Assembly: GCF_006440675.2 (NCBI RefSeq)
Contig: NZ_CP083951.1
Location: forward strand, 620,001-684,000
From: Mesorhizobium sp. B2-8-5
Lineage (GTDB): Bacteria > Pseudomonadota > Alphaproteobacteria > Rhizobiales > Rhizobiaceae
DNA: 64,000 bases
Direction: 5' to 3'
Every line of letters starts with the position of its first letter. Position 1 is the stretch's first letter. Of this stretch, positions 1 to 9,785 are shown in pieces. Both the position numbers and the translations under genes were made by a program. The notes under the pieces were generated by a model. It did no database searches. It saw nothing but the letters and a program-made list of their open reading frames with translations, and was not told where the DNA came from.

Positions 1-764
1 TCATAATCGACCAACGAGCCGGTCATGACGCCGGCCTGGGGGCTCAGCATATAGGTGATCAGCCGGGCAAGCTGCGCCGGCTTGACCAGTTGGCCCATGG
101 GCTGCGCTGCCTCGGCCTTTGCCAGCCAATCGTCGGGGGCGTCGTGCCACTTCTTCTGCACGATCGCCTCGCCTTCGGTGTCCATCCAGCCGGGCAGCAC
201 CGCGTTGCAGCGGATGCGGTTCTTCCGGTAGGAGCTCGCAACATTCTTGGTCAGCGTCATCAGCGCGCCCTTGCTGGTCGAATAGGGCGTCAGGAACGAC
301 TGGCCGGCATGCGCCGACATCGACAGCACGTTGACGATCGAGCCGGGCGCCTTGCGTTCGAGCAGATGCGCGACGAGGCCCTGCATCAGGAAGAAGGGGC
401 CGCGCACATTGGTGTCGAAGATCTGGTCGAAAAGCTCTTCCGAGGTCTCGACCAGCGAGCCGCGCGCGGAAGTGGCGGCGGCGTTGACCAGCGCGTTCAG
501 CGTGCCGAAATGCGCGATGGCCGTTGCCACGGCGCGCTTGCAATCGGCGACCTTGGCGACATCGGCGCTGATGAAGATGGCGTCGACGCCGTTCTTCTTC
601 AGCGCCGCGACCGCCCTGTCGCCCTTTTCCTGCGAGCGGCCGATCAGGGCCAGCGCGCGGCAGCCCTCGTCGGCCAAGGCTTCCGCAACCGCGAAGCCGA
701 TGCCCTGCGCGCCGCCGGTGACGATGGCACGCGTTTCTGAATTGCGACCGGCCAAACCGTTCAT
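1..764 (-). CDS. SDR family NAD(P)-dependent oxidoreductase (3' end outside window)
   Basis: Reading leftward from an ATG at 764, about 254 codons stay open to the window edge, so the C-terminus is missing. The N-terminus has the Rossmann motif TGGAQGIG (about residues 16-23). Further on are an NAAAT stretch, a serine in the VLSMSAHAG strand and a YSTSK catalytic Tyr/Lys pair. This is the classical short-chain dehydrogenase/reductase layout, so it is an NAD(P)-dependent alcohol or sugar oxidoreductase. The substrate cannot be read from sequence. It points the same way as the inositol-type dehydrogenase and importer genes to its right, but a 377-bp gap containing a repeat separates them, so operon membership is uncertain. 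Confidence 0.85.
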   Translation of the reverse strand, partial: MNGLAGRNSETRAIVTGGAQGIGFAVAEALADEGCRALALIGRSQEKGDRAVAALKKNGVDAIFISADVAKVADCKRAVATAIAHFGTLNALVNAAATSARGSLVETSEELFDQIFDTNVRGPFFLMQGLVAHLLERKAPGSIVNVLSMSAHAGQSFLTPYSTSKGALMTLTKNVASSYRKNRIRCNAVLPGWMDTEGEAIVQKKWHDAPDDWLAKAEAAQPMGQLVKPAQLARLITYMLSPQAGVMTGSLVDY

Positions 765-879
765 CGCTCTGCTCCTGTGTTTTGAATGACCAATGGATTT
801 TCGAGGTTCATTGACGTTCCGATCAGCTTCCCGGTGCCTTGTCGCGACGTTCACAACTTGGCCGAGGCGTCCCCAACTT

Positions 880-1062
880 CGTCATCCTAGGGCGAAGCAG
901 GAGCGAAGCTCCGTCGCGGAGACCCTAGGATCCATGCCGTGACCCCGGCCGAAGAATGCCGCGGCGCAGAATTCTGGACCGTTGGGCACCGCTCCGATGT
1001 AACGGCATGGATCCTCGGGTCTGCGCGCGTCGCTTCGCTCCTTGCTCCGCCCGTGGATGACG
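880..1062. repeat. Palindromic repeat family A, copy 1 (about 183 bp)
   Basis: This is a long imperfect inverted repeat in the gap 765-1141. The left arm begins CGTCATCCTAGGGCGAAGC and the right arm ends GCCCGTGGATGACG. Each arm is about 60 bp and has an inner copy of the CCATGCCGT / ACGGCATGG pair. A second copy lies at 5618-5798. Short open frames inside it are a by-product of the repeat and I do not call them genes. The rest of this gap shows no gene. Confidence 0.85.
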
Positions 1063-1141
1063 ACGCGATGGATGTTCCGGCTACTCGCCACCCTTGCAGA
1101 CCAACAAACCGACCATCCTTCAAAGCGTTCGCCCAGCCGGA

Positions 1142-2134
1142 CTAGTCGACGCGGACGGTCTTGCCCGTCTTGGCCGACTGCAAGGCAGCGTCCGCCAGCT
1201 TCAGCGCGATCAGCCCATCCTTGCCGCTCGGTGCCGCCTTCTTGCCTGCGGTGGCAGCGGCGATGAAGGAGGCGATCTCATTGGCATAGGCGTCGATGTA
1301 GCGGGTCATGAAGAAGTCGTGCAGCGGCGGGCGGGTGTAGCCCTTGTCGTTGGCGAGCTCGATCGACACCGGCCGCTGGTTCTCGGCCGCGACCATGCCC
1401 TTGGAGCCATGCACCTCGATGCGCTGGTCGTAGCCATAGGTGGCACGGCGCGAATTGGAGATGACGGCCTGCTTGCCGGAGGCGGTTTCGAGGATGACGC
1501 TGACGCTATCGAAATCGCCTGCTTCGCCGATCTTCCTGTCGACCAGCACGGAGGCGTGGGCGCTCACCGCAACCGGCTCCTCGCCGAGCAGGAAGCGCGC
1601 CATGTCGAAATCATGGATGGTCATATCGCGAAAAATGCCGCCCGAGCGGGCGATGTAATCGAGCGGCGGGGCGCCGGGATCGCGCGACGTGATGGTGACC
1701 ATCTCGACCGTGCCGATGGCGCCGTCATCGATCGCCTTGCGGACGGCGGCGAAATGCGGATCGAAGCGGCGGTTGAAGCCGACCATCAGCGTGGCGCCGG
1801 TCTTTTCGACCACCGCCAGGCATTTTTCGACGCGCTCGACGGAGAGGTCGATCGGCTTTTCGCAGAAGATCGCCTTGCCGGCCTTGGCGAAGCGCTCGAT
1901 CAGATCGGCGTGGGTGTCGGTCGGCGTGCAGATGATGACGGCGTCGATGTCCTTGGCCTTCTCGATCGCCTCGATCGTGCGGACTTCCGCGCCATAGGCG
2001 GAAGCGAGCTCCGTCGCCGCTTTCTCGAACGCATCGGCGACGGCGACCAGCTTGGCCTGCGGGTTGGAGGCGACGGCGCGGGCATGCACCTTGCCGATAC
2101 GGCCGGCGCCGAGGAGAGCGAAGCGGAGTGTCAT
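1142..2134 (-). CDS. Inositol 2-dehydrogenase-like Gfo/Idh/MocA oxidoreductase
   Basis: This is a 330-aa NAD-dependent dehydrogenase of the Gfo/Idh/MocA family. It has the N-terminal GAGRIG nucleotide loop (residues 9-14), the EKP motif (92-94) and the D170/H174 pair. These match the Lys-Asp-His triad of myo-inositol dehydrogenases, which oxidise a cyclitol ring hydroxyl to an inosose in the cytoplasm. The start at 2134 is preceded by AAGGA; longer upstream reading belongs to the previous gene's other frame. It is the last gene of the minus-strand run after the ABC importer, about 83 bp behind the ATPase. Rhizopine MocA belongs to the same family. The exact substrate (inositol, inosamine or a methylated derivative) is inferred from context. 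Confidence 0.85.
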   Translation of the reverse strand: MTLRFALLGAGRIGKVHARAVASNPQAKLVAVADAFEKAATELASAYGAEVRTIEAIEKAKDIDAVIICTPTDTHADLIERFAKAGKAIFCEKPIDLSVERVEKCLAVVEKTGATLMVGFNRRFDPHFAAVRKAIDDGAIGTVEMVTITSRDPGAPPLDYIARSGGIFRDMTIHDFDMARFLLGEEPVAVSAHASVLVDRKIGEAGDFDSVSVILETASGKQAVISNSRRATYGYDQRIEVHGSKGMVAAENQRPVSIELANDKGYTRPPLHDFFMTRYIDAYANEIASFIAAATAGKKAAPSGKDGLIALKLADAALQSAKTGKTVRVD

Positions 2135-2217
2135 GGAATGTCCTTCGAGGGTGGGTTTTGTAGGCATATCCGCGCCTTCCGGCGCGGATGACTGGTTTGA
2201 TCCCGTCGTGGCCCCCG

Positions 2218-2988
2218 TCAGGCGGCCTGCAGCTCCGCCTGTCCGGTCTTGGCGCCGGTGATGTAGGCGACGATGTCGTTGCCGTCGGTGTCTTGTTTGC
2301 GCAGATTGGCGACGATCTTGCCGCGACGGAAGACGACGATGCGGTCGACCAGGTCGAACACCTGGCGCATGTTGTGGCTGACCAGGATCAGCGGCTCGCC
2401 GTTTTCCTTCAGCGTGCGGATGATGTTTTCGACCTGCGCCGTCTCTTGCACGCCGAGCGCCGCCGTCGGCTCGTCCATGATGATCAGCTTGGAGGCGAAG
2501 GTCGCGGTCCTGGCGATCGCCACGCACTGGCGCTGGCCGCCCGACATGTGGCGAATGGTGCTGGAGAGGTTCGGGATCTTCACCGCCGTGCGGACAAGTG
2601 CTGCCTCCGTCGCCTTGCGCATCGCCTTGCGGTCGAGGATCGAGAACGGCCCGAGATTGAACAGCACCTTCTCGCGGCCGAGGAACAGGTTCGACGGCAC
2701 GTCGAGGTCGTCGGCCAGAGCGAGGTTCTGGAACACTGTCTCGATGCCCGCCTCGCGCGCCTCGATCGGGCCGGCGAAATTCACCTCCTTGCCGTCGAAC
2801 CAGATCTTGCCGTCGGTGCGCTGCTCGACGCCGGTGATCTGGCGCACGAAGGTCGACTTGCCGGCGCCGTTGTCGCCCATGATGGCGACGTGCTCGCCCT
2901 TGCGCAGCTCGAAATTCGCCTCCTGGAGCGCGTGCACGCCGCCATAGTGCTTGGTGAGGTTTTCGGTCTTCAGAACGATGTCGGACAT
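2218..2988 (-). CDS. Sugar/cyclitol ABC transporter ATP-binding protein (half-size)
   Basis: This 256-aa ATPase carries Walker A GDNGAGKST (38-46), a Q-loop around VFQNLAL, the signature MSGGQRQ and Walker B LIIMDEP followed by the switch histidine in SHNMRQ. It is a single nucleotide-binding domain, unlike the duplicated RbsA/IatA type. It is closer in size to rhizobial FrcA, so two copies should act with the permease. The start at 2988 lies 2 bp after the permease stop, which suggests translational coupling. It powers uptake of the ligand bound by the periplasmic protein encoded at 4204-5145. Confidence 0.92.
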   Translation of the reverse strand: MSDIVLKTENLTKHYGGVHALQEANFELRKGEHVAIMGDNGAGKSTFVRQITGVEQRTDGKIWFDGKEVNFAGPIEAREAGIETVFQNLALADDLDVPSNLFLGREKVLFNLGPFSILDRKAMRKATEAALVRTAVKIPNLSSTIRHMSGGQRQCVAIARTATFASKLIIMDEPTAALGVQETAQVENIIRTLKENGEPLILVSHNMRQVFDLVDRIVVFRRGKIVANLRKQDTDGNDIVAYITGAKTGQAELQAA

Positions 2989-2990
2989 GG

Positions 2991-4067
2991 TCAAGCTCCT
3001 ATCGCGCGGCGGCGCTGGCGCCATTGATCGAGAACGACCGCGCCGACGATGATCACGCCCTTGACCATCTCCTGATAGTAGGCGTCGAGGCGCAGGAAGG
3101 TGAAGCCGGAAATGATGACGCCGAAGATCAGCGAGCCGATCACGGTGCCGATGATGGAACCGCGGCCGCCCGACAGCGAAACGCCGCCGATGACCGCCAT
3201 GGCGATGGCGTCGAGCTCGTACATGACGCCCATGCCGGCCTGGGCGGTGAGGTTCTTGGAGGAGAGAACCACCGCGGCGATCGCTGCCAGGATACCGGCG
3301 ATGGCATAGACCAGCACCTTGTGGTTGGCGATCTTGATGCCGGACATGCGCGCGGCATCCTCGTTGGAACCGATGGCGTAGCAGTGCTTGCCGTATTTCG
3401 TGTAGGTCAGGATGAGCTGGAACAGGATCGCCAGCGAGATGAAGATGACGACAGGCATCAGGCCCTTGCCGATGGCCGCGAAGCTCTCGGTCGGGAACGA
3501 GATCGGCTGGCCCTTCGACCACCATTTGGCGATGCCGCGGGCGGTGACCATCATGCCGAGCGTGGCGATGAAAGGCGGGATGCGGGTGTAGGCGATCAAC
3601 AGGCCGTTGATCAGGCCGGCGATCAGGCCACAGCCGACCGCAACCAGCAGCGGCACGACGACCGGCAGGTCGGTCCAGCCATAGTCGATGAACATCGCCT
3701 TGGGATTGGGATTGCCGTTGACGGTCGCGACTTGCGCGAAGCTCATGGCGATCATGGCGGTGGCGCCGACGATCGAGCCCGAGGAGAGGTCGATGCCGCC
3801 GCAGATGATGACCTGGGTGACGCCGATGGCGATGATGCCGACGATCGACACCTGCAGGATGATGATTTCCAGACGCTGCTGGTTGAAGATCGCGTTGACG
3901 TTCTCGCGGGTGTTGAACAGGAAGCTGTCGCCAAGGAAGACTCGGCCGATCAGTTCGAAGGCGACGACGAGGATGACCAGCGCCAGAAACACGTTGAATT
4001 CGGCGGGCCATGGACGCTTCTTGGCGTCATAGCTCAACCCGCCAATGCCATGCGATGTCTGTGACAC
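2991..4067 (-). CDS. Sugar/cyclitol ABC transporter permease (RbsC/IatP family)
   Basis: This is a 358-aa inner-membrane permease of the BPD_transp_2 type. It has about ten hydrophobic segments starting near residue 25 and a cytoplasmic loop with GSNEDAARMSGI, the usual RbsC-family coupling region. It forms the membrane channel for the neighbouring binding protein and ATPase. The gene order (binding protein, permease, ATPase, dehydrogenase) matches inositol import loci in Rhizobiales and Caulobacter. A strong hairpin lies in the gap between this gene and the binding protein gene upstream of it. Confidence 0.93.
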   Translation of the reverse strand: MSQTSHGIGGLSYDAKKRPWPAEFNVFLALVILVVAFELIGRVFLGDSFLFNTRENVNAIFNQQRLEIIILQVSIVGIIAIGVTQVIICGGIDLSSGSIVGATAMIAMSFAQVATVNGNPNPKAMFIDYGWTDLPVVVPLLVAVGCGLIAGLINGLLIAYTRIPPFIATLGMMVTARGIAKWWSKGQPISFPTESFAAIGKGLMPVVIFISLAILFQLILTYTKYGKHCYAIGSNEDAARMSGIKIANHKVLVYAIAGILAAIAAVVLSSKNLTAQAGMGVMYELDAIAMAVIGGVSLSGGRGSIIGTVIGSLIFGVIISGFTFLRLDAYYQEMVKGVIIVGAVVLDQWRQRRRAIGA

Positions 4068-4093
4068 GTCTTCTTCCTCCGAATGACCGCGCC

Positions 4094-4123
4094 CGTTCTC
4101 CCGCCCGGTGGGGCGGGAGAACG
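4094..4123. promoter_or_regulatory. Intercistronic hairpin between binding-protein and permease genes
   Basis: This is a perfect 13-bp stem (CGTTCTCCCGCCC / GGGCGGGAGAACG) with a 4-base loop, in the 136-bp gap downstream of the binding-protein gene. No T-run follows on the minus strand, so it is not a clear terminator. By analogy with malE-malF, such stems can protect the upstream mRNA so that the binding protein is made in excess. Confidence 0.7.
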
Positions 4124-4203
4124 AAGGGAGCGGCGCCGCTTTAACAGCAGCCGATTTCAGCCGGTCCGATGCGTCGGCGCGCCGCTCATCGAGAAGTCCA
4201 GCC

Positions 4204-5145
4204 TCAGTTCTTCTTCAGGAACTTGTCGATGTTCGCCGGGGTGACAAGCTGGAAGGGCACATAGACCTTGTGCTCGACCTTCTCGCCCTTGGCGAGCTTC
4301 AGCGCCGCGTCGAGCGCGCCGGCGCCCTGGCCGGCGGCGTCCTGGAACACCGTCACATCAAGATCGCCGGCCTGCATCGCGGCCAGCGCGTCCTGGGTGG
4401 CGTCGACGCCGCCGACGACCACCGACTTCATGTCGACATTCGCGGCCTTCATTGCCTGGATGGCGCCGATGGCACTCTCGTCGTTGTTGGCGATGACGCC
4501 GTCGAACGGCTTGCCGGACGACAGCCAGTTGGTCATCAGGTTCTGCGCCTGGTCACGATCCCAATTCGAGGTCTGCTTGTCGATGATCTTGATGAAGCTG
4601 CAGTCCGGGGTGGCGATCACTTCCTCGATGTCCTTGGTGCGCTGCACCGCGGCCTGGTTGGATAGCTCGCCCATGATCACATAGACATTGGCTTCCTTCT
4701 TGCCGGCTTCCTTGAACAGGCGGCAGGCTTCCTTGGTCTCGAGCGTGCCGGATTCGGATTCGTTCGAAGCGACGAAGGCCTGGTTGTCGGGCAGCGAGTC
4801 GACATTGACCGGCTGGCGATTGACATAGACCAACGGGATCTTGGCCGCGGCGGCCGCATCCGACATCGCCTGGGTGGCCGAGGTGTCGACCGGATTGACG
4901 ATGATGGCGTCGACGCCCGATGCGGCAAAATTCTTGATCTGGTCTAGCTGCTTGGCCACGTCGTTCTGCGCGTCCTCGACCTGCAGCTCGACGCCGTCCA
5001 TGCCCTTGGCCTGCGCGATCATGCCGTTGCGCAGCACGGTCAGGAAGTTGTCGTCGAACTTGGCCATCGAAACGCCGATCTTGGCGGCGAAGGCGGATGA
5101 ACACATCAGCGCCGAAAGCGCGACGCCCAAAAGCAGTTTCTTCAT
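4204..5145 (-). CDS. Periplasmic sugar/cyclitol-binding protein of ABC importer (IbpA/MocB-like)
   Basis: This 313-aa protein has a clear Sec signal peptide (MKKLLLGVALSALMCSSAFA, cleavage after AFA). A type I periplasmic binding fold of the RbsB/IbpA class follows: KIGVSMAKFDDNFL, the VDAIIVNPVD strand and the hinge region VIANNDESAIGAIQAMK. The start at 5145 is chosen because GGAGGAG sits just upstream and the signal peptide begins there. It is the first gene of the importer operon and delivers the ligand to the permease. Inositol or an inositol derivative is the best guess, because of the downstream inositol-type dehydrogenase. Confidence 0.92.
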   Translation of the reverse strand: MKKLLLGVALSALMCSSAFAAKIGVSMAKFDDNFLTVLRNGMIAQAKGMDGVELQVEDAQNDVAKQLDQIKNFAASGVDAIIVNPVDTSATQAMSDAAAAAKIPLVYVNRQPVNVDSLPDNQAFVASNESESGTLETKEACRLFKEAGKKEANVYVIMGELSNQAAVQRTKDIEEVIATPDCSFIKIIDKQTSNWDRDQAQNLMTNWLSSGKPFDGVIANNDESAIGAIQAMKAANVDMKSVVVGGVDATQDALAAMQAGDLDVTVFQDAAGQGAGALDAALKLAKGEKVEHKVYVPFQLVTPANIDKFLKKN

Positions 5146-5324
5146 TTTATCTCTCCTCCACTTGGTGTCCGGCTGCACCCATTTGAACCGGAATCCCCGG
5201 TTTGCCCGGGGAATCTCTCCCTGCGGCCATGCGGCGCTGCCAATCCGGTGGAACGCCTCTTCCTCCGTTCGAAACAGACGCTTCGGAACGAAAGAACCAA
5301 AAAGCCTAGTTAGTGAAATATTTA

Positions 5325-5341
5325 TTCCATTTCGTTTGGAA
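5325..5341. promoter_or_regulatory. Candidate LacI-type operator upstream of the importer operon
   Basis: The inverted repeat TTCCA-N7-TGGAA has a central TTTCGTT and lies in an AT-rich stretch about 180 bp upstream of the binding-protein start. Centred CG dyads of this kind are usual for LacI-family regulators, and one is encoded at 5887-6918. The assignment is inference. Confidence 0.35.
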
Positions 5342-5445
5342 ACGTCAAGGGTGATTCCGACTGGGGCAGTCGGTTTTTCGATCGCGATCGTCGCGGCGAA
5401 GACCCACGATCATCGCTGCATGGGCCAGAATCGCGGCAAACCGCC

Positions 5446-5480
5446 GTGAAAGAATCCATCAGCCTGATGGATTCTTTCAC
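5446..5480. repeat. Perfect 15-bp hairpin palindrome
   Basis: GTGAAAGAATCCATC and its exact reverse complement are separated by the 5-base spacer AGCCT, within the 741-bp gap 5146-5886. No T-tract follows on either strand, so a simple intrinsic terminator is unlikely. It may be an mRNA-stabilising stem or a repeat remnant. The rest of the gap holds a candidate operator (5325-5341) and repeat family A copy 2; I see no gene there. Confidence 0.75.
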
Positions 5481-5617
5481 ATCGATCCCATTGCTCCGGG
5501 AGTCAGTTCCCCGACACAGGGATTTTGAAAGGTTGCCGTTTGTCTTGGTGCAGGACTTTCCGTTCATTTCCGTGAATCAGCGCAAACGCCGGGGATTGGT
5601 TGAAGCCGCCCCAACCT

Positions 5618-5798
5618 CGTCATTCTATGGCGGAGCAAGGAGCGAAGCGACGCGCGCAGACCATAGAATCCATTCCGTGACTTGGAAGCGTTGCTGCGGT
5701 GAAGAATTTTGCTCCGTCGCACGCCTTGGCGAAGGTAACGGCATGGATTCCAGGGTCTTCGCGACGGAGCTTCGCTCCTGCTCCGCCCTAGAATGACG
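5618..5798. repeat. Palindromic repeat family A, copy 2 (about 181 bp)
   Basis: This has the same architecture and orientation as 880-1062. It opens CGTCATTCTATGGCGGAGC, closes GCCCTAGAATGACG and contains inner CCATTCCGT / ACGGCATGG blocks. Several stem changes are compensatory between the copies, which suggests the structure matters. The two copies flank the importer operon. Confidence 0.85.
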
Positions 5799-5886
5799 AT
5801 CGCGAAGGGCGTTTCGGCCAATCTCCAACGCATGCCACCTGCCAACGCAAACAAAGCCGACCGGTCAAAATCCCTGTGCTGGGGAA

Positions 5887-6918
5887 CTAGATATTTTCCG
5901 GCAGGTAGATGTCGAAGGGCAGGAAGGTCTGTCCCGGCGCATTGGCCGCGCCGCTTTCGATGGCATGGGCCATCAGCCCGACGAGTTCCCGGCAGAGTGC
6001 CGCGAGCGGTGTCGAGATGACCATGGTGAGGATGTTATCGGCGAGCGCGGCGCGCGAGACGGCGTTGATCTCGTTGCAGATGACGATCGGCATCTCGGCC
6101 GGGCTCGCCGCCCTCAGCGCCGAGACCGCGCCCTCCATGCCGCCGCCGGCGACATAGCAACCGGCAAGATCGGGATGGCGCGCCAGAAGATCGAGCATGG
6201 CGTCATGCGTGACGTCATTGGCCTCGAGGTTGACCAGCGTCTCCATCACGGTGAAGTCCGGCGCGTGCTCGCGGAAATAGGAGCGGAAGCCGATCTCGCG
6301 CAATTCATGGCCGTGGAAGCGATGGCTGCCGACGAAGAGCGCGACCTTGCCTGGCTTCCTGGCGGCCTTGGCGATCATCCAGGCGGCGCTGCGCCCGACC
6401 TTGCGGTTGTCGAGACCGACATAGCCCTCGCGGATACCGGCGGCAAAATCGGACAGCAGCGAGAAGACCGGCTGCCCCCTCGCCTTCAGCGCCTCCACGA
6501 CCGCCGTCAGCGTCGGATGATCCGGGCCGACGACGGCAATGGCTCTCGACTTCGCCGCCAGCCCACGCATCTGGGCGGCAATCTCGTCGGGCGCCAGCGA
6601 GGCGGCGAAATCGACTGTCGCAGCGCCGCGAAAGCGTTGCGATTGTGCGACCGCCAGCTCGAGTTCCCTGGCGAAATCGCCATAGAAGACGTCATTGCCC
6701 CTCAGCAGCAGGAAGCCGAGCCGGTATTCCGGCAATTCCTGTCGCATGCGCTGCTTGATCAGTCCCGCCGCGTGATAGCCGATCTCGGTGGCGGCCTCGT
6801 AGACCCGGCGCGCCGTCTCCTCGCGCACAGGCAGGCGGCTGTTCAGCACTCTGTCGACGGTAGCGACGCTGACGCCCGAGACGCGCGCGAGATCGGTAAT
6901 GGTCGGCCGCTTTGCCAT
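5887..6918 (-). CDS. LacI family transcriptional regulator
   Basis: This 343-aa protein has an N-terminal LacI helix-turn-helix (TITDLARVSGVSVATVDRVL, about residues 5-24). A periplasmic-binding-protein-like sensor domain with an elongated linker follows. It lies between the importer operon, which reads the same way after a 741-bp gap, and the divergent oxygenase operon. It is therefore well placed to control both in response to the imported compound. The ligand is inferred, not seen. The start at 6918 begins the conserved MAKRPTITDLA sequence. Confidence 0.92.
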   Translation of the reverse strand: MAKRPTITDLARVSGVSVATVDRVLNSRLPVREETARRVYEAATEIGYHAAGLIKQRMRQELPEYRLGFLLLRGNDVFYGDFARELELAVAQSQRFRGAATVDFAASLAPDEIAAQMRGLAAKSRAIAVVGPDHPTLTAVVEALKARGQPVFSLLSDFAAGIREGYVGLDNRKVGRSAAWMIAKAARKPGKVALFVGSHRFHGHELREIGFRSYFREHAPDFTVMETLVNLEANDVTHDAMLDLLARHPDLAGCYVAGGGMEGAVSALRAASPAEMPIVICNEINAVSRAALADNILTMVISTPLAALCRELVGLMAHAIESGAANAPGQTFLPFDIYLPENI

Positions 6919-6968
6919 GAATGCTCCATCGCTTATCCGGCTGAGGGTATCTCATTCTGATAGGAAAT

Positions 6969-6981
6969 GATAGAAACTATC
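6969..6981. promoter_or_regulatory. Candidate operator in the divergent regulator/oxygenase promoter region
   Basis: The dyad GATAG-AAA-CTATC lies about 50 bp upstream of the regulator start and 110 bp upstream of the desaturase start. The short arms make this tentative. It does not match the candidate site at 5325-5341. Confidence 0.3.
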
Positions 6982-7091
6982 TTTCTGATGTTGAGCCTAT
7001 CATGGGCTGGCGGTATGTTGAAGTGCAAGCTGGCCATGGACGAGCCCGGACCTGCCGGAGCCGTTCACCAGGCGCTGTTGGAGGAACCTCA

Positions 7092-8198
7092 ATGACGGCC
7101 ATGACGTCTTTGGCAACGCCGCCACGCGACTACAGCCTGACCGGCCGCGATGCAAAACGCGCCGTCGAGAACGGGCTGTCGGCGGCCGAGTGGTACCACA
7201 CCGAAATCCCGCGCAAGCGGATGAAGGAGTTGATGCAGCGCTCGGACCAGCCGGCGATCCGCGACACCATCATATGGCTGGCCGCTTTCATCGTCAGCGC
7301 CGCGGGCGGCATCTGGTTCTGGGGCAGCTGGTGGTGCGTGCCGTTCCTGTTCGTCTACGGCACGCTCTACGGTTCCTCGACCGATTCCCGCTGGCACGAA
7401 TGCGGCCACGGCACGGCCTTCCGCACGCAGTGGATGAACGACGCCGTCTACCAGCTGGCCTGCTTCATGATCATGCGCAACCCGGTGACCTGGCGCTGGA
7501 GCCACACGCGCCACCACACCGACACCATCATCGTCGGCCGCGACCCGGAGATCGCCGTTATGCGGCCGCCGGACCTGCTGCGCGTGGTGCTCAACTTCTT
7601 CGGCATTCTCGACGCCTGGCACGCGGTCGTCGACATGGTGCGCAACGCCGCCGGCGTCATCAGCGCCGCTGAAAAAACCTTCATTCCAGAGCGGGAGCAG
7701 CCGAAGGCGATCCGGGTGGCCCGCATATGGCTCGCCATCTACGTCGCGACCATCGCCTTGGCCCTCTACCTGCATTCGTGGCTGCCGCTGATGCTGATCG
7801 GCCTGCCCCGGCTCTATGGCGCCTGGCATCACGTCATGACCGGCCTGCTGCAGCATGGCGGCCTCGCCGACAATGTCATCGACCACCGCCTGAACAGCCG
7901 CACGGTGCTGATGAACCCGATCAGCCGCTTCATCTACTGGAACATGAACTACCATGTGGAGCACCACATGTTCCCGATGGTGCCCTATCACGCGCTGCCG
8001 AAGCTGCATGAGATGATCAAGCACGACCTGCCAGCGCCGACGCCTTCGATCCTGGCCGGTTATCGCGAGATGGTTCCGGCCTTCCTGCGCCAGTTGCGCA
8101 ACGAGGATTATTTCCTCAAGCGCGCGCTGCCGCCGACGGCGAAGCCCTATCGCGAGGAACTGCATAACGATATTCCGATGGCTGCCGCCGCGGAGTGA
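7092..8198 (+). CDS. Desaturase-like di-iron oxygenase (MocD-like)
   Basis: This 368-aa membrane protein of the fatty acid desaturase superfamily has the three histidine boxes HECGH (102-106), HTRHH (138-142) and HVEHH (288-292). It also has hydrophobic spans around 60-95 and 215-240. The start at 7092 is chosen for the GGAGGA just upstream and the MTAMTSLATP beginning. It overlaps the next gene's upstream frame and is followed 38 bp later by a Rieske ferredoxin and then a reductase, which would supply its electrons. This trio has the composition of mocD-mocE-mocF of rhizopine catabolism, where the system is thought to remove an O-methyl group. A lipid desaturase role cannot be excluded from sequence alone. 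Confidence 0.82.
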   Translation: MTAMTSLATPPRDYSLTGRDAKRAVENGLSAAEWYHTEIPRKRMKELMQRSDQPAIRDTIIWLAAFIVSAAGGIWFWGSWWCVPFLFVYGTLYGSSTDSRWHECGHGTAFRTQWMNDAVYQLACFMIMRNPVTWRWSHTRHHTDTIIVGRDPEIAVMRPPDLLRVVLNFFGILDAWHAVVDMVRNAAGVISAAEKTFIPEREQPKAIRVARIWLAIYVATIALALYLHSWLPLMLIGLPRLYGAWHHVMTGLLQHGGLADNVIDHRLNSRTVLMNPISRFIYWNMNYHVEHHMFPMVPYHALPKLHEMIKHDLPAPTPSILAGYREMVPAFLRQLRNEDYFLKRALPPTAKPYREELHNDIPMAAAAE

Positions 8199-8236
8199 GG
8201 CCCAAAGAAATTCAAGGATATTCGCTGGAGGACGAG

Positions 8237-8551
8237 ATGAGCGACTGGGTCGAGGCCTGCGCGGCCGGAGACATTGACGAAGAGGACGTGATGCGGTTCG
8301 ACCATGCCGGCCGCACCTTTGCCATCTACCGCAGCCCGGACGACGAATATTTCGCGACCGACGGCCTGTGCACGCATGAAAAGGTGCATCTGGCCGACGG
8401 GCTGGTGATGGACGACATCATCGAATGCCCCAAGCACAACGGCCGCTTCAACTACAAGACCGGCGACGCGCGCGGCGCGCCGGTCTGCGTCAACCTCAAG
8501 ACCTATCCGGTCAAGGTCGACGCCGGCAAAGTCCTGATCCAGATCGGGTGA
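8237..8551 (+). CDS. mocE: MocE-type Rieske [2Fe-2S] ferredoxin
   Basis: This is a 104-aa soluble Rieske ferredoxin. The cluster ligands are C45-T-H47 and C64-P-K-H67, with the 16-residue spacing seen in this family. The start at 8237 has GGAGGACGAG immediately upstream; an earlier in-frame ATG overlaps the desaturase stop and is less likely. The protein should pass electrons from the reductase encoded next to the di-iron oxygenase before it. The MocE subfamily was named from the Rhizobium rhizopine locus. The gene symbol reflects the subfamily, not a proven role in rhizopine use. Confidence 0.85.
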   Translation: MSDWVEACAAGDIDEEDVMRFDHAGRTFAIYRSPDDEYFATDGLCTHEKVHLADGLVMDDIIECPKHNGRFNYKTGDARGAPVCVNLKTYPVKVDAGKVLIQIG

Positions 8552-8555
8552 GATC

Positions 8556-9785
8556 ATGCAAGCGGGGATGGTGATCATCGGAGCAGGCGAATGCGGCGGG
8601 CGCGCCGCGCTTGCGCTCCGCGATCTCGGTTTCGAAGGGCCGGTCGCGCTGGTCGGCGACGAGCCGCATCTGCCCTATGAGCGGCCGCCGCTGTCGAAGG
8701 AAGCGATGACCGGCGAGGCGCCGGCCATCAAGGCGATCGCCAGCGACGCGTTTTTCGCCGAACGCTCGATCCGCCACATCCATTCCGTCCGCGCCGTCGC
8801 GATCGATCGCGGCGCGCACGTCGTGCGGCTGTCGGACGGCTCTTCCCTGCCATATGAAAAGCTTTTGCTGGCGACCGGATCGGTGCCGCGCAAGCTGTCG
8901 ATGCCGGGGCTTGGCGGCCGCTGCGTCTATCTCAGGACCTTCAACGACGCTTTAGCCATTCGCGCCCATCTCAGCGCCGGCAACCGTGTCGCCATCATCG
9001 GCGGCGGCTTCATCGGCCTCGAGCTCGCGGCCTCGGCGCGCAAGCTTGGCGCCATCGTCACGGTCATCGAGGCGCAGCCGCGCATCCTGATGCGCGGCGT
9101 GCCGGCCGAGATCGCCGAAATCATCCACAAGGCGCATGAGACCGAGGGTGTTGCGATCCGCACCGGCCAGGGAATCGCAGCGATTGACGATGACGGCGCG
9201 GAGGTCGGCATCACGCTGGCCGACGGACGGAAGGTCATCGCCGATCTCACGGTGATCGGCATCGGCGCCGTGCCGGTGACGGCGCTTGCCGCCGAAAGTG
9301 GGCTAACAATCGACAACGGCATCGCTGTCGATGAGCATTTGCGCACAGCCGATCCGGATATCTTCGCCGCCGGCGATTGCTGCTCGTTCCCGCTCGCCGT
9401 CTATGGCGGCCGGCGGGTGCGGCTGGAGGCCTGGCGCAACGCCCAGGAACAGGGCGCACTGGCTGCGAAGAACATGCTGGGCGCCGATGCGGCGCATGCC
9501 GCCGTGCCGTGGTTCTGGTCGGATCAGTACGGGCTTACCCTGCAGATCGCCGGGCTGTCGGACGAAGGCAAGAGCATCGTGCGGCGCGACCTCGATGACG
9601 GCGCCTTCATCCTGTTCCACCTGGCGGAAGACGGCAGACTGGTCGCCGCCAGCGGCATCGGCCCCGGCAATTCGGTGGCGCGCGACATCCGCCTGGCGGA
9701 GATGCTGATCGCCAAGAGAGCGAGCCCGGCGCCGGAAGCGCTCGGCTCGCAGGCGGTCAAGCTGAAGTCGCTGCTGGCGGCGTGA
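8556..9785 (+). CDS. NAD(P)H-dependent ferredoxin reductase (MocF-like)
   Basis: This 409-aa FAD-dependent reductase belongs to the oxygenase-coupled family (like ThcD, putidaredoxin reductase and BphA4). It has an N-terminal IIGAGECGG dinucleotide loop, the PYERPPLSK segment typical of this family, a second Rossmann motif (IIGGGFIGLE, near residue 148) and the FAAGDC FAD motif. It starts 4 bp after the ferredoxin stop, so the two are probably co-translated. Its expected role is to reduce the Rieske ferredoxin for the desaturase-like oxygenase. Confidence 0.9.
   Translation: MQAGMVIIGAGECGGRAALALRDLGFEGPVALVGDEPHLPYERPPLSKEAMTGEAPAIKAIASDAFFAERSIRHIHSVRAVAIDRGAHVVRLSDGSSLPYEKLLLATGSVPRKLSMPGLGGRCVYLRTFNDALAIRAHLSAGNRVAIIGGGFIGLELAASARKLGAIVTVIEAQPRILMRGVPAEIAEIIHKAHETEGVAIRTGQGIAAIDDDGAEVGITLADGRKVIADLTVIGIGAVPVTALAAESGLTIDNGIAVDEHLRTADPDIFAAGDCCSFPLAVYGGRRVRLEAWRNAQEQGALAAKNMLGADAAHAAVPWFWSDQYGLTLQIAGLSDEGKSIVRRDLDDGAFILFHLAEDGRLVAASGIGPGNSVARDIRLAEMLIAKRASPAPEALGSQAVKLKSLLAA

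What the first reader, a model, noticed from the sequence alone, without database searches (positions are those of the whole stretch)
1142..9785. Cyclitol importer plus MocD-MocE-MocF-like oxygenase under one LacI regulator: candidate methyl-inositol or rhizopine catabolic locus
Seen: an ABC importer with an inositol-type dehydrogenase (EKP and D/H triad), a LacI regulator, and a divergent operon of a three-histidine-box di-iron oxygenase, a MocE-type Rieske ferredoxin and a ferredoxin reductase. Known: rhizopine use in Rhizobium needs a MocA (Gfo/Idh) dehydrogenase, a MocB binding protein and MocD/E/F, thought to demethylate 3-O-methyl-scyllo-inosamine. Inferred: this locus takes up an O-methylated cyclitol, strips the methyl group and oxidises the ring. 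Legume compounds such as pinitol or ononitol are as plausible as rhizopine. mocC and a GntR-type mocR are not seen.
Basis: partly seen in the sequence, partly recalled or inferred. Interest (0 to 1): 0.8.

Follow-up and report, generated by a model that had tools for sequence, protein, structure and literature searches.

The report
Candidate methyl-inositol uptake and demethylation locus
A gene cluster kept in many Mesorhizobium species probably imports methylated plant inositols (such as pinitol) and strips off the methyl group, and its regulator is a close relative of one that switches on nitrogen fixation in some nodule bacteria.

Summary
The genes are where stated (plus an SDR after iolG). 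IolG and the MocE ferredoxin pass curated cut-offs; the oxygenase has three histidine boxes. The locus recurs: 69 of 80 LacI relatives have MocD divergent, 60 of these the importer next.

A 17-bp palindrome (aTGATAGAaTCTATCAt) learnt from 51 other LacI|mocD regions gives the three best sites of the 64-kb window: one at the mocD promoter, two before the importer. One LacI probably controls both operons. In 35 of 43 mocD promoters the site lies exactly 16 bp before the -35 box, an activator-like place.

It is not a rhizopine (moc) locus: the binding protein scores 36.7 of 420 bits and no moc-box was found; a MocR/MocB locus lies 25-33 kb to the left. A KPHMT-like gene follows mocDE in 58 of 82 loci, sometimes with PurU, which fits one-carbon release.

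Best reading: uptake and oxidative O-demethylation of plant methyl-inositols (pinitol, ononitol). Substrate and enzyme activity are inferred. FixV-type regulators next to nifA nest among these LacI proteins, which makes methyl-inositol a testable FixV ligand; the operator evidence there is weak.

The parts
1..764 (-). SDR-family dehydrogenase downstream of iolG; 264 aa in all, its end lies beyond base 1 of the window
   Evidence: read across the window border into the adjoining bases; PF13561 170.1 bits, PF00106 167.7; an SDR-looking protein (judged by sequence, not scanned) lies near MocD in 15 fetched loci
879..1063 (.). MITE-like repeat copy between iolG and the SDR (inverted with respect to the copy at 5617-5799)
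   Evidence: I1, I2: 103 and 78 nt, 82-83% complementary
1142..2134 (-). iolG: inositol 2-dehydrogenase (Gfo/Idh/MocA)
   Evidence: TIGR04380 428 bits > 355; best solved relative 4hkt 551.9 bits
2218..2994 (-). CUT2-type ABC importer ATPase
2991..4067 (-). CUT2-type ABC importer permease (PF02653)
4204..5142 (-). periplasmic binding protein (PF13407); closest solved chain by sequence 4yo7; not MocB
5446..5462 (.). predicted LacI operator, importer side, site 1 (15.1 bits)
   Evidence: matching sites in relatives
5464..5480 (.). predicted LacI operator, importer side, site 2 (15.1 bits)
5505..5888 (.). repeat-bounded segment (outer arms 5505-5540/5853-5888) with a MITE-like element 5617-5799 inside it, in the LacI-binding protein gap, where relatives carry a TIM-barrel gene or a shorter gap
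   Evidence: I4, I5; gaps in relatives
5887..6918 (-). LacI/GalR regulator, relative of FixV
6967..6983 (.). predicted LacI operator at the mocD promoter (20.7 bits, best site in the 64-kb window)
6991..7019 (+). predicted mocD promoter: -35 TTGAGC (6991-6996), 17-bp spacer, -10 TATGTT (7014-7019)
7092..8198 (+). mocD-like membrane di-iron oxygenase (FA_desaturase fold, His boxes at residues 102, 138, 288)
8237..8551 (+). mocE-like Rieske ferredoxin (ORF opens at 8195 GTG; the ATG at 8237 gives the length of the own-genome paralogue)
   Evidence: TIGR02377 193.8 bits > 136.15
8556..9785 (+). mocF-like ferredoxin reductase (Pyr_redox_2 + Reductase_C)

Best explanation
A catabolic locus for O-methylated inositols of plants (pinitol, ononitol or a close relative). 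The CUT2 importer (binding protein, permease, ATPase) brings the methyl-inositol in. The MocD membrane di-iron oxygenase, fed electrons from NAD(P)H through the ferredoxin reductase (MocF) and the Rieske ferredoxin (MocE), hydroxylates the methyl group, so that formaldehyde leaves and a free inositol remains. IolG (perhaps with the SDR) oxidises the inositol to an inosose that enters the iolCDEB pathway encoded about 18-24 kb to the left. The LacI/FixV-type regulator binds palindromes in front of both operons and, with an imported methyl-inositol or a product as ligand, most likely activates them. Shown by computation: gene identities, conservation, the shared predicted operator and its fixed position. 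Inferred: substrate, demethylation, direction of regulation, ligand.
For: IolG and MocE pass equivalog/subfamily cut-offs; iolB, iolC, iolD, iolE of the same genome pass theirs. The operator motif, learnt without the window, gives its three best sites of 64 kb exactly at the two promoters: 20.7, 15.1, 15.1 bits, next 9.2. In named relatives the operator is >=15 bits at mocD in 67 of 69 and at the importer in 34 of 60 (>=11 in 49 of 60), against 0 (12) of 1066 control windows. A -35 TTGA starts 16 bp after the operator centre in 35 of 43 mocD promoters, an activator-like position; the related FixV activates nifA2 (PMC3538637, section 9 read). A KPHMT(PanB)-like gene lies downstream of MocD in 58 of 82 loci, PurU near it in 12, FolD in 1; PanB-like confirmed as KPHMT-fold in the own-genome copy, PurU and FolD by Pfam in M. 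huakuii: a folate one-carbon set that suits formaldehyde release. In Rhizobium mesoamericanum mocDEF homologues rise 1.53-2.11-fold in Mimosa exudate in which pinitol is the main compound (145 uM; inositol 0.73 uM) (PMC5789663, passages).
Confidence: 0.6

Rival explanations
1. Rhizopine locus in two pieces: the window's MocDEF demethylates 3-O-methyl-scyllo-inosamine taken up by the MocB importer encoded 25-33 kb to the left, and the window's importer and IolG handle inositol made from it.
For: The same genome has MocR (729.8 bits, cut-off 650) and MocB (504.5, cut-off 420) with an IolE-type (mocC-like) gene and a moc-box-like direct repeat between mocR and that gene. All 8 genomes with MocB over cut-off, of 297 searched, also have a MocD relative. 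Published mocDEF belong to the rhizopine system (PMC10107442, passages).
Against: The window's mocD promoter carries a LacI operator and no moc-box (best 9 mismatches of 22; 4 at the moc locus). 78 of the 86 MocD genomes lack MocB over cut-off. A MocB probe hit none and a MocR-type probe hit one (L117) of the 99 fetched MocD neighbourhoods. The window's binding protein is not MocB and shares only a weak local match with it. Nothing here excludes that MocDEF also serves rhizopine.
Confidence: 0.17
2. The oxygenase removes the methyl group from (or hydroxylates) another O-methylated sugar or sugar acid of plants or cell walls, and the IolG-type dehydrogenase and importer act on that sugar, not on a cyclitol.
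For: The binding protein ties in fold with glucose/galactose receptors. Sister clusters pair the same MocDE with other importers, Gfo/Idh, TIM-barrel and DUF4432 genes, so the enzyme class is not tied to one substrate. IolG-family members can be promiscuous (recalled).
Against: IolG passes the inositol 2-dehydrogenase equivalog cut-off and its best solved relative is named inositol 2-dehydrogenase; an iolC, iolD, iolE or iolB gene lies within reach in 5 of the 47 LacI-type loci. Exudate data point to pinitol.
Confidence: 0.15
3. The desaturase-like protein modifies lipids and its neighbourhood is accidental.
For: It belongs to PF00487.
Against: Scores for lipid desaturase models are trivial (DesB 31.3 vs 500); dedicated ferredoxin and reductase in the same operon; shared operator with the importer; conserved arrangement.
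Confidence: 0.03

Closest known systems
mocDEF of the rhizopine catabolic (moc) system of Sinorhizobium meliloti L5-30 and Rhizobium leguminosarum
   Same: oxygenase, MocE-type ferredoxin and reductase in one operon; Gfo/Idh dehydrogenase and CUT2 importer nearby
   Different: LacI in place of the GntR/aminotransferase MocR, LacI operator in place of moc-boxes, binding protein outside the MocB family, no mocC-like gene in the cluster; the genome's MocR/MocB locus is elsewhere. The L5-30 sequences themselves were not compared
LacI(FixV homologue)-mocDEF clusters noted in M. loti MAFF303099, S. meliloti, NGR234, R. etli, R. leguminosarum (PMC3538637)
   Same: the same divergent LacI and mocDEF; some with the Msi119-type TIM-barrel gene
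   Different: here the importer and iolG are tied in by a shared predicted operator; the paper's text has no hit for 'operator' or 'palindrom' and it calls the mocDEF cluster rhizopine catabolism
FixV of M. loti R7A, activator of nifA2
   Same: nifA-adjacent relatives (L253, L254) are 65-66% identical to the window's LacI and nest inside the mocD-adjacent LacI tree
   Different: controls a nitrogen-fixation activator instead of a catabolic operon; R7A FixV itself was not compared
myo-inositol ABC importers (IntABC; IatA/IatP/IbpA, recalled)
   Same: CUT2 class
   Different: in this genome the importer next to iolCDEB has the MocB-type binding protein; the window's is a second, distant importer (25% identity over 151 residues)

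Membership tests
rhizopine catabolic (moc) locus | MocB-type binding protein (NF052284) | tested here: not met
   36.7 bits, cut-off 420
rhizopine catabolic (moc) locus | MocR (GntR + aminotransferase) as regulator of the cluster | tested here: not met
   regulator is LacI; MocR at 586.5-587.9 kb in the genome, outside the window
rhizopine catabolic (moc) locus | moc-box direct repeat (AAAGYGGYTCT, 13-bp spacer) at the mocD promoter | tested here: not met
   best 9 mismatches of 22 in 6891-7110; 4 mismatches at L020:2285-2319; motif from PMC10107442
rhizopine catabolic (moc) locus | MocE-type ferredoxin with MocD-type oxygenase and reductase | tested here: met
   TIGR02377 193.8 > 136.15; PF00487, Pyr_redox_2/Reductase_C
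rhizopine catabolic (moc) locus | mocC in the cluster | tested here: not met
   an IolE probe (mocC-like) hits nothing in the window at E<=1e-12; it hits L020:2536-3426, which is an IolE-type protein (TIGR04379 394.1 > 290)
rhizopine catabolic (moc) locus | growth on 3-O-methyl-scyllo-inosamine | not testable with these tools
   needs a culture experiment
inositol 2-dehydrogenase (IolG) | TIGR04380 equivalog score over cut-off | tested here: met
   428 > 355 bits
lipid (fatty acid) desaturase | equivalog score with a lipid desaturase model | tested here: not met
   best NF052549 31.3 of 500 bits; no solved relative at E<=1
FixV-type LacI regulators | groups with nifA-adjacent LacI rows | tested here: met
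   nifA-adjacent rows nest inside the mocD-adjacent set, quick tree, SH-aLRT only; R7A FixV itself was not in the set
FixV-type LacI regulators | operator shared with fixV-nifA2 promoters | tested here: inconclusive
   L259 17.1 and L255/L257/L258/L261 12.0 bits in LacI-TIM loci; in the two LacI-nifA loci only half-sites with one extra base between them
inositol-specific ABC importer | binding of a (methyl-)inositol | not testable with these tools
   sequence and fold neighbours only

The most novel reading that the evidence does not exclude
The LacI/FixV family are activators that sense host O-methyl-inositols (pinitol, ononitol). Its ancestral job is the importer-IolG-MocDEF regulon described here; in some Mesorhizobium symbiosis islands a copy and its operator were captured in front of nifA2, so that a legume's methyl-inositol, plentiful in Lotus nodules, tells the bacterium that it is inside a nodule and may start nitrogen fixation.
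Probability: 0.3. Interest if true: 0.88.

Novelty: new variant of a known kind. Interest (0 to 1): 0.62.

Why it matters
Legumes widely make methyl-inositols; they accumulate in Lotus nodules (PMC8730688, passages) and pinitol is the most concentrated component measured in Mimosa exudate (PMC5789663, passages). My paper searches (listings and abstract starts only) showed no bacterial gene set for demethylating them. A defined regulon with predicted operator, importer and enzyme makes this directly testable, questions 'rhizopine' as the default label for the widespread mocDEF genes, and gives a concrete candidate ligand for FixV, whose inducer the 2013 paper left as possibly an inositol derivative.

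Tried and rejected
Rhizopine locus as the whole answer: rejected for the window on binding protein, regulator and promoter tests, kept as a rival because the genome has a MocR/MocB locus and all 8 MocB genomes (of 297) have MocD. Lipid desaturase: rejected. Housekeeping inositol importer: less likely, because the iolCDEB locus has its own importer. Repressor by a site over the promoter: less likely, because the site is upstream of -35 at a fixed 16 bp. NifA in the window's genome: none over cut-off (best 343.5 of 528.85), so the strain itself looks non-symbiotic.

What led nowhere or stands against me: the operator motif has no site over 7 bits in the sister clusters L021 and L022; MocD has no solved relative; the MocD tree is not used, because two of its three outgroup rows (OUT_L001, OUT_L005) were wrongly picked open frames and the careful search was not finished. 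L024 held one 15.7-bit motif match (1350-1366) that I did not follow, and a simulated 6.46-Mb sequence gave 6 positions over 14 bits, so the motif alone does not find targets genome-wide. The FixV test has a result against it: in R7A the shortest Fix+ fragment starts 22 bp after fixV (536 of 558 bp; PMC3538637 section 8), which would cut off a site placed at +4 to +19 as in L253/L254; R7A's own sequence was not examined. The rigid 17-bp matrix gave at best 1.6 and 2.9 bits in the two LacI-nifA gaps, and nothing after LacI in L179, L216 (the same record) and L242.

Rows dropped before counts: 19 of 101 MocD loci with under 6 kb on a side (the three plasmid records L045-L047 were not counted); 11 of 54 non-redundant intergenic regions with a best site under 12 bits; 11 of 80 LacI loci without a divergent MocD; 25 of 105 LacI relatives not kept by the tool.
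Full report
WHAT IS THERE. The window is G000:C1:620001-684000 of a 6.46-Mb single-contig genome; its nearest named relatives at this locus are Mesorhizobium. The genes reported at 1142-9785 are all present. On the minus strand: LacI regulator, binding protein, permease, ATPase, IolG, then an SDR dehydrogenase that runs past base 1. On the plus strand, divergent from LacI: an oxygenase of the FA_desaturase fold with boxes HECGH, HTRHH and HVEHH, a MocE-family Rieske ferredoxin (TIGR02377, 193.8 bits, cut-off 136.15) and a ferredoxin reductase. IolG passes the inositol 2-dehydrogenase equivalog cut-off (428 against 355 bits) and its best solved relative is 4hkt, named inositol 2-dehydrogenase.

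ONE REGULATOR, TWO OPERONS. I took the LacI|MocD intergenic regions of 57 loci, left out the window, its close copies L078-L081 and redundant ones, and learnt a palindromic motif from the remaining 51: aTGATAGAaTCTATCAt, 17.5 bits. In the 64-kb window the three best matches are 6967-6983 (20.7 bits, LacI|mocD) and 5446-5462 and 5464-5480 (15.1 bits each, about 300 bp before the binding-protein gene); the next is 9.2. In 127,611 background positions one exceeds 10 bits. A plain pattern search agrees: 6 strand matches in the window, all from these three sites, against 0.19 expected. Over the whole genome the same pattern (two mismatches allowed) matches 43 times against 18 for the reversed control; three places match with one mismatch, one of them the mocD site, the other two not followed. 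In 80 named LacI relatives (the best of 105), 69 have MocD divergent and 60 of these have the binding protein next to LacI; the operator is at least 15 bits at mocD in 67 of 69 and at the importer in 34 of 60 (at least 11 bits in 49 of 60), against 0 and 12 of 1066 control windows. This set is biased towards Mesorhizobium by the query and shares a few mocD promoters with the training set (see Tried and rejected); the importer sites were not trained on.

LIKELY AN ACTIVATOR. In 43 usable mocD promoters (of 54 non-redundant), a TTGA -35 box starts exactly 16 bp after the operator centre in 35; of 30 TA-type -10 hits scored behind such boxes, 25 have a 17-bp spacer. In the window this gives TTGAGC 6991-6996 and TATGTT 7014-7019, so translation of mocD from 7002 is unlikely. 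A site about 52 bp before the inferred start of transcription is where activators sit; that FixV, a relative, activates nifA2 is published (PMC3538637: sections 8 and 9 read, passages otherwise). At importer promoters (50 with a site of 11 bits or more, the window among them) a TTG stands 48 bp after the operator centre in 16, at 15 bp in 9 and at 47 bp in 7; the 48-bp cases include several near-identical promoters, and the window's own has it at 15. 16 and 48 differ by 32 bp, about three helical turns.

NOT THE RHIZOPINE LOCUS. The binding protein scores 36.7 bits on the rhizopine binding-protein model (cut-off 420). The mocD promoter has no moc-box: best 9 mismatches of 22 (motif from PMC10107442, passages). 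The genome has a rhizopine-type locus elsewhere, in L020 = 586-605 kb: MocR 729.8 bits (cut-off 650), an IolE-type (mocC-like) gene, YdjC, MocB 504.5 bits (420), permease, ATPase, a second IolG (52% identical to the first), with a moc-box-like repeat (4 mismatches) between mocR and the IolE-type gene, and iolC, iolD, iolE, iolB next to it. MocB over cut-off occurs in 8 of 297 genomes, and all 8 have a MocD relative, so some MocDEF may serve rhizopine; but 78 of the 86 MocD genomes have no such MocB, and MocB and MocR-type probes hit 0 and 1 of the 99 MocD neighbourhoods. I therefore keep rhizopine as a rival (0.17) and prefer plant methyl-inositols.

LINK TO NITROGEN FIXATION. In M. albiziae (L253) and M. 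camelthorni (L254) a relative of this LacI (66 and 65% identical) stands directly before NifA (758.3 and 627.7 bits, cut-off 528.85). These proteins, and those followed by the TIM-barrel gene in M. amorphae, M. escarrei and M. metallidurans, form one group nested inside the mocD-adjacent LacI proteins in a quick tree. Just after the LacI stop, the TIM-type loci carry operator matches (17.1 bits in L259; 12.0 in L255, L257, L258, L261). In the two nifA loci the same place holds TGATGAAAGTCTATCA and TGATGGAAGTCTATCA, half-sites with one extra base between them, centred 48.5 bp before TTGACT; the TIM loci L255, L257 and L259 give 48-49 bp, L182 gives 35. The rigid motif does not score the nifA-side sites, and the R7A deletion data are not in plain agreement (see Tried and rejected). 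The 2013 paper proposed an inositol derivative as FixV ligand; the regulon described here suggests which: a methyl-inositol. The window's own genome has no NifA over cut-off.

VERDICT. Observation confirmed, interpretation partly supported. It is a new variant of a known kind: mocDEF-type oxygenase in a LacI/FixV-type regulon with a cyclitol-type importer and IolG. Confidence in methyl-inositol demethylation 0.6.

Noticed in passing
L020 (G000:C1:586000-605000), outside the window: Rhizopine-type locus mocR | iolE/mocC-like-ydjC-mocB-permease-ATPase-iolG followed by an RpiR-type regulator and iolCDEB, with a moc-box-like repeat at L020:2285-2319; no mocDEF beside it.
   Followed up: partly
L021 (G000:C1:3106000-3125000): Sister cluster Gfo/Idh-TIM barrel-CUT2 importer-DUF4432-MocD-MocE-PanB-like; 17 of 82 loci with full flanks are of this kind; no reductase in the own-genome copy.
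   Followed up: partly
L022 (G000:C1:5508000-5527000): Third cluster: LacI | FA_hydroxylase-type (PF04116) enzyme, CUT2 importer, Gfo/Idh, TIM barrel, MocE ferredoxin, TIM-barrel and PanB-like pieces: the membrane oxygenase family is swapped while the rest of the set stays.
   Followed up: no
L024 (G000:C1:6205000-6224000): Fourth set: FA_desaturase-type enzyme (31% identical to MocD), CUT2 importer, FGGY kinase, Rieske ferredoxin and a ring-hydroxylating-type subunit.
   Followed up: no
PanB-like genes, e.g. L021:13472-14275, L046:14718-15518: A KPHMT-fold family downstream of MocD in 58 of 82 loci that looks altered at catalytic positions (roles recalled); annotated as 3-methyl-2-oxobutanoate hydroxymethyltransferase, function unknown.
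   Followed up: partly
window 5505-5888, 5617-5799 and 879-1063: Nested repeat elements in the LacI-importer gap and a further copy between iolG and the SDR.
   Followed up: no
L253:2944-3010, L254:9033-9100: Operator-like half-sites with an extra base, 48.5 bp before TTGACT, between LacI (FixV-type) genes and nifA.
   Followed up: partly
L182 (Mesorhizobium loti DSM 2626): The LacI with TIM barrel on one side and PanB-like, PurU and the importer divergent on the other, without MocD: the one-carbon and import genes of the regulon kept while the oxygenase is not within 8 kb.
   Followed up: no
PMC6341043 and PMC5132102 (passages): Naming trap: mocD/mocE of the mannopine plasmid pAoF64/95 are other genes; in Pseudomonas syringae mocDEF stand beside a second xylose-isomerase gene (xylA2), which recalls the TIM-barrel neighbour seen here.
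   Followed up: no
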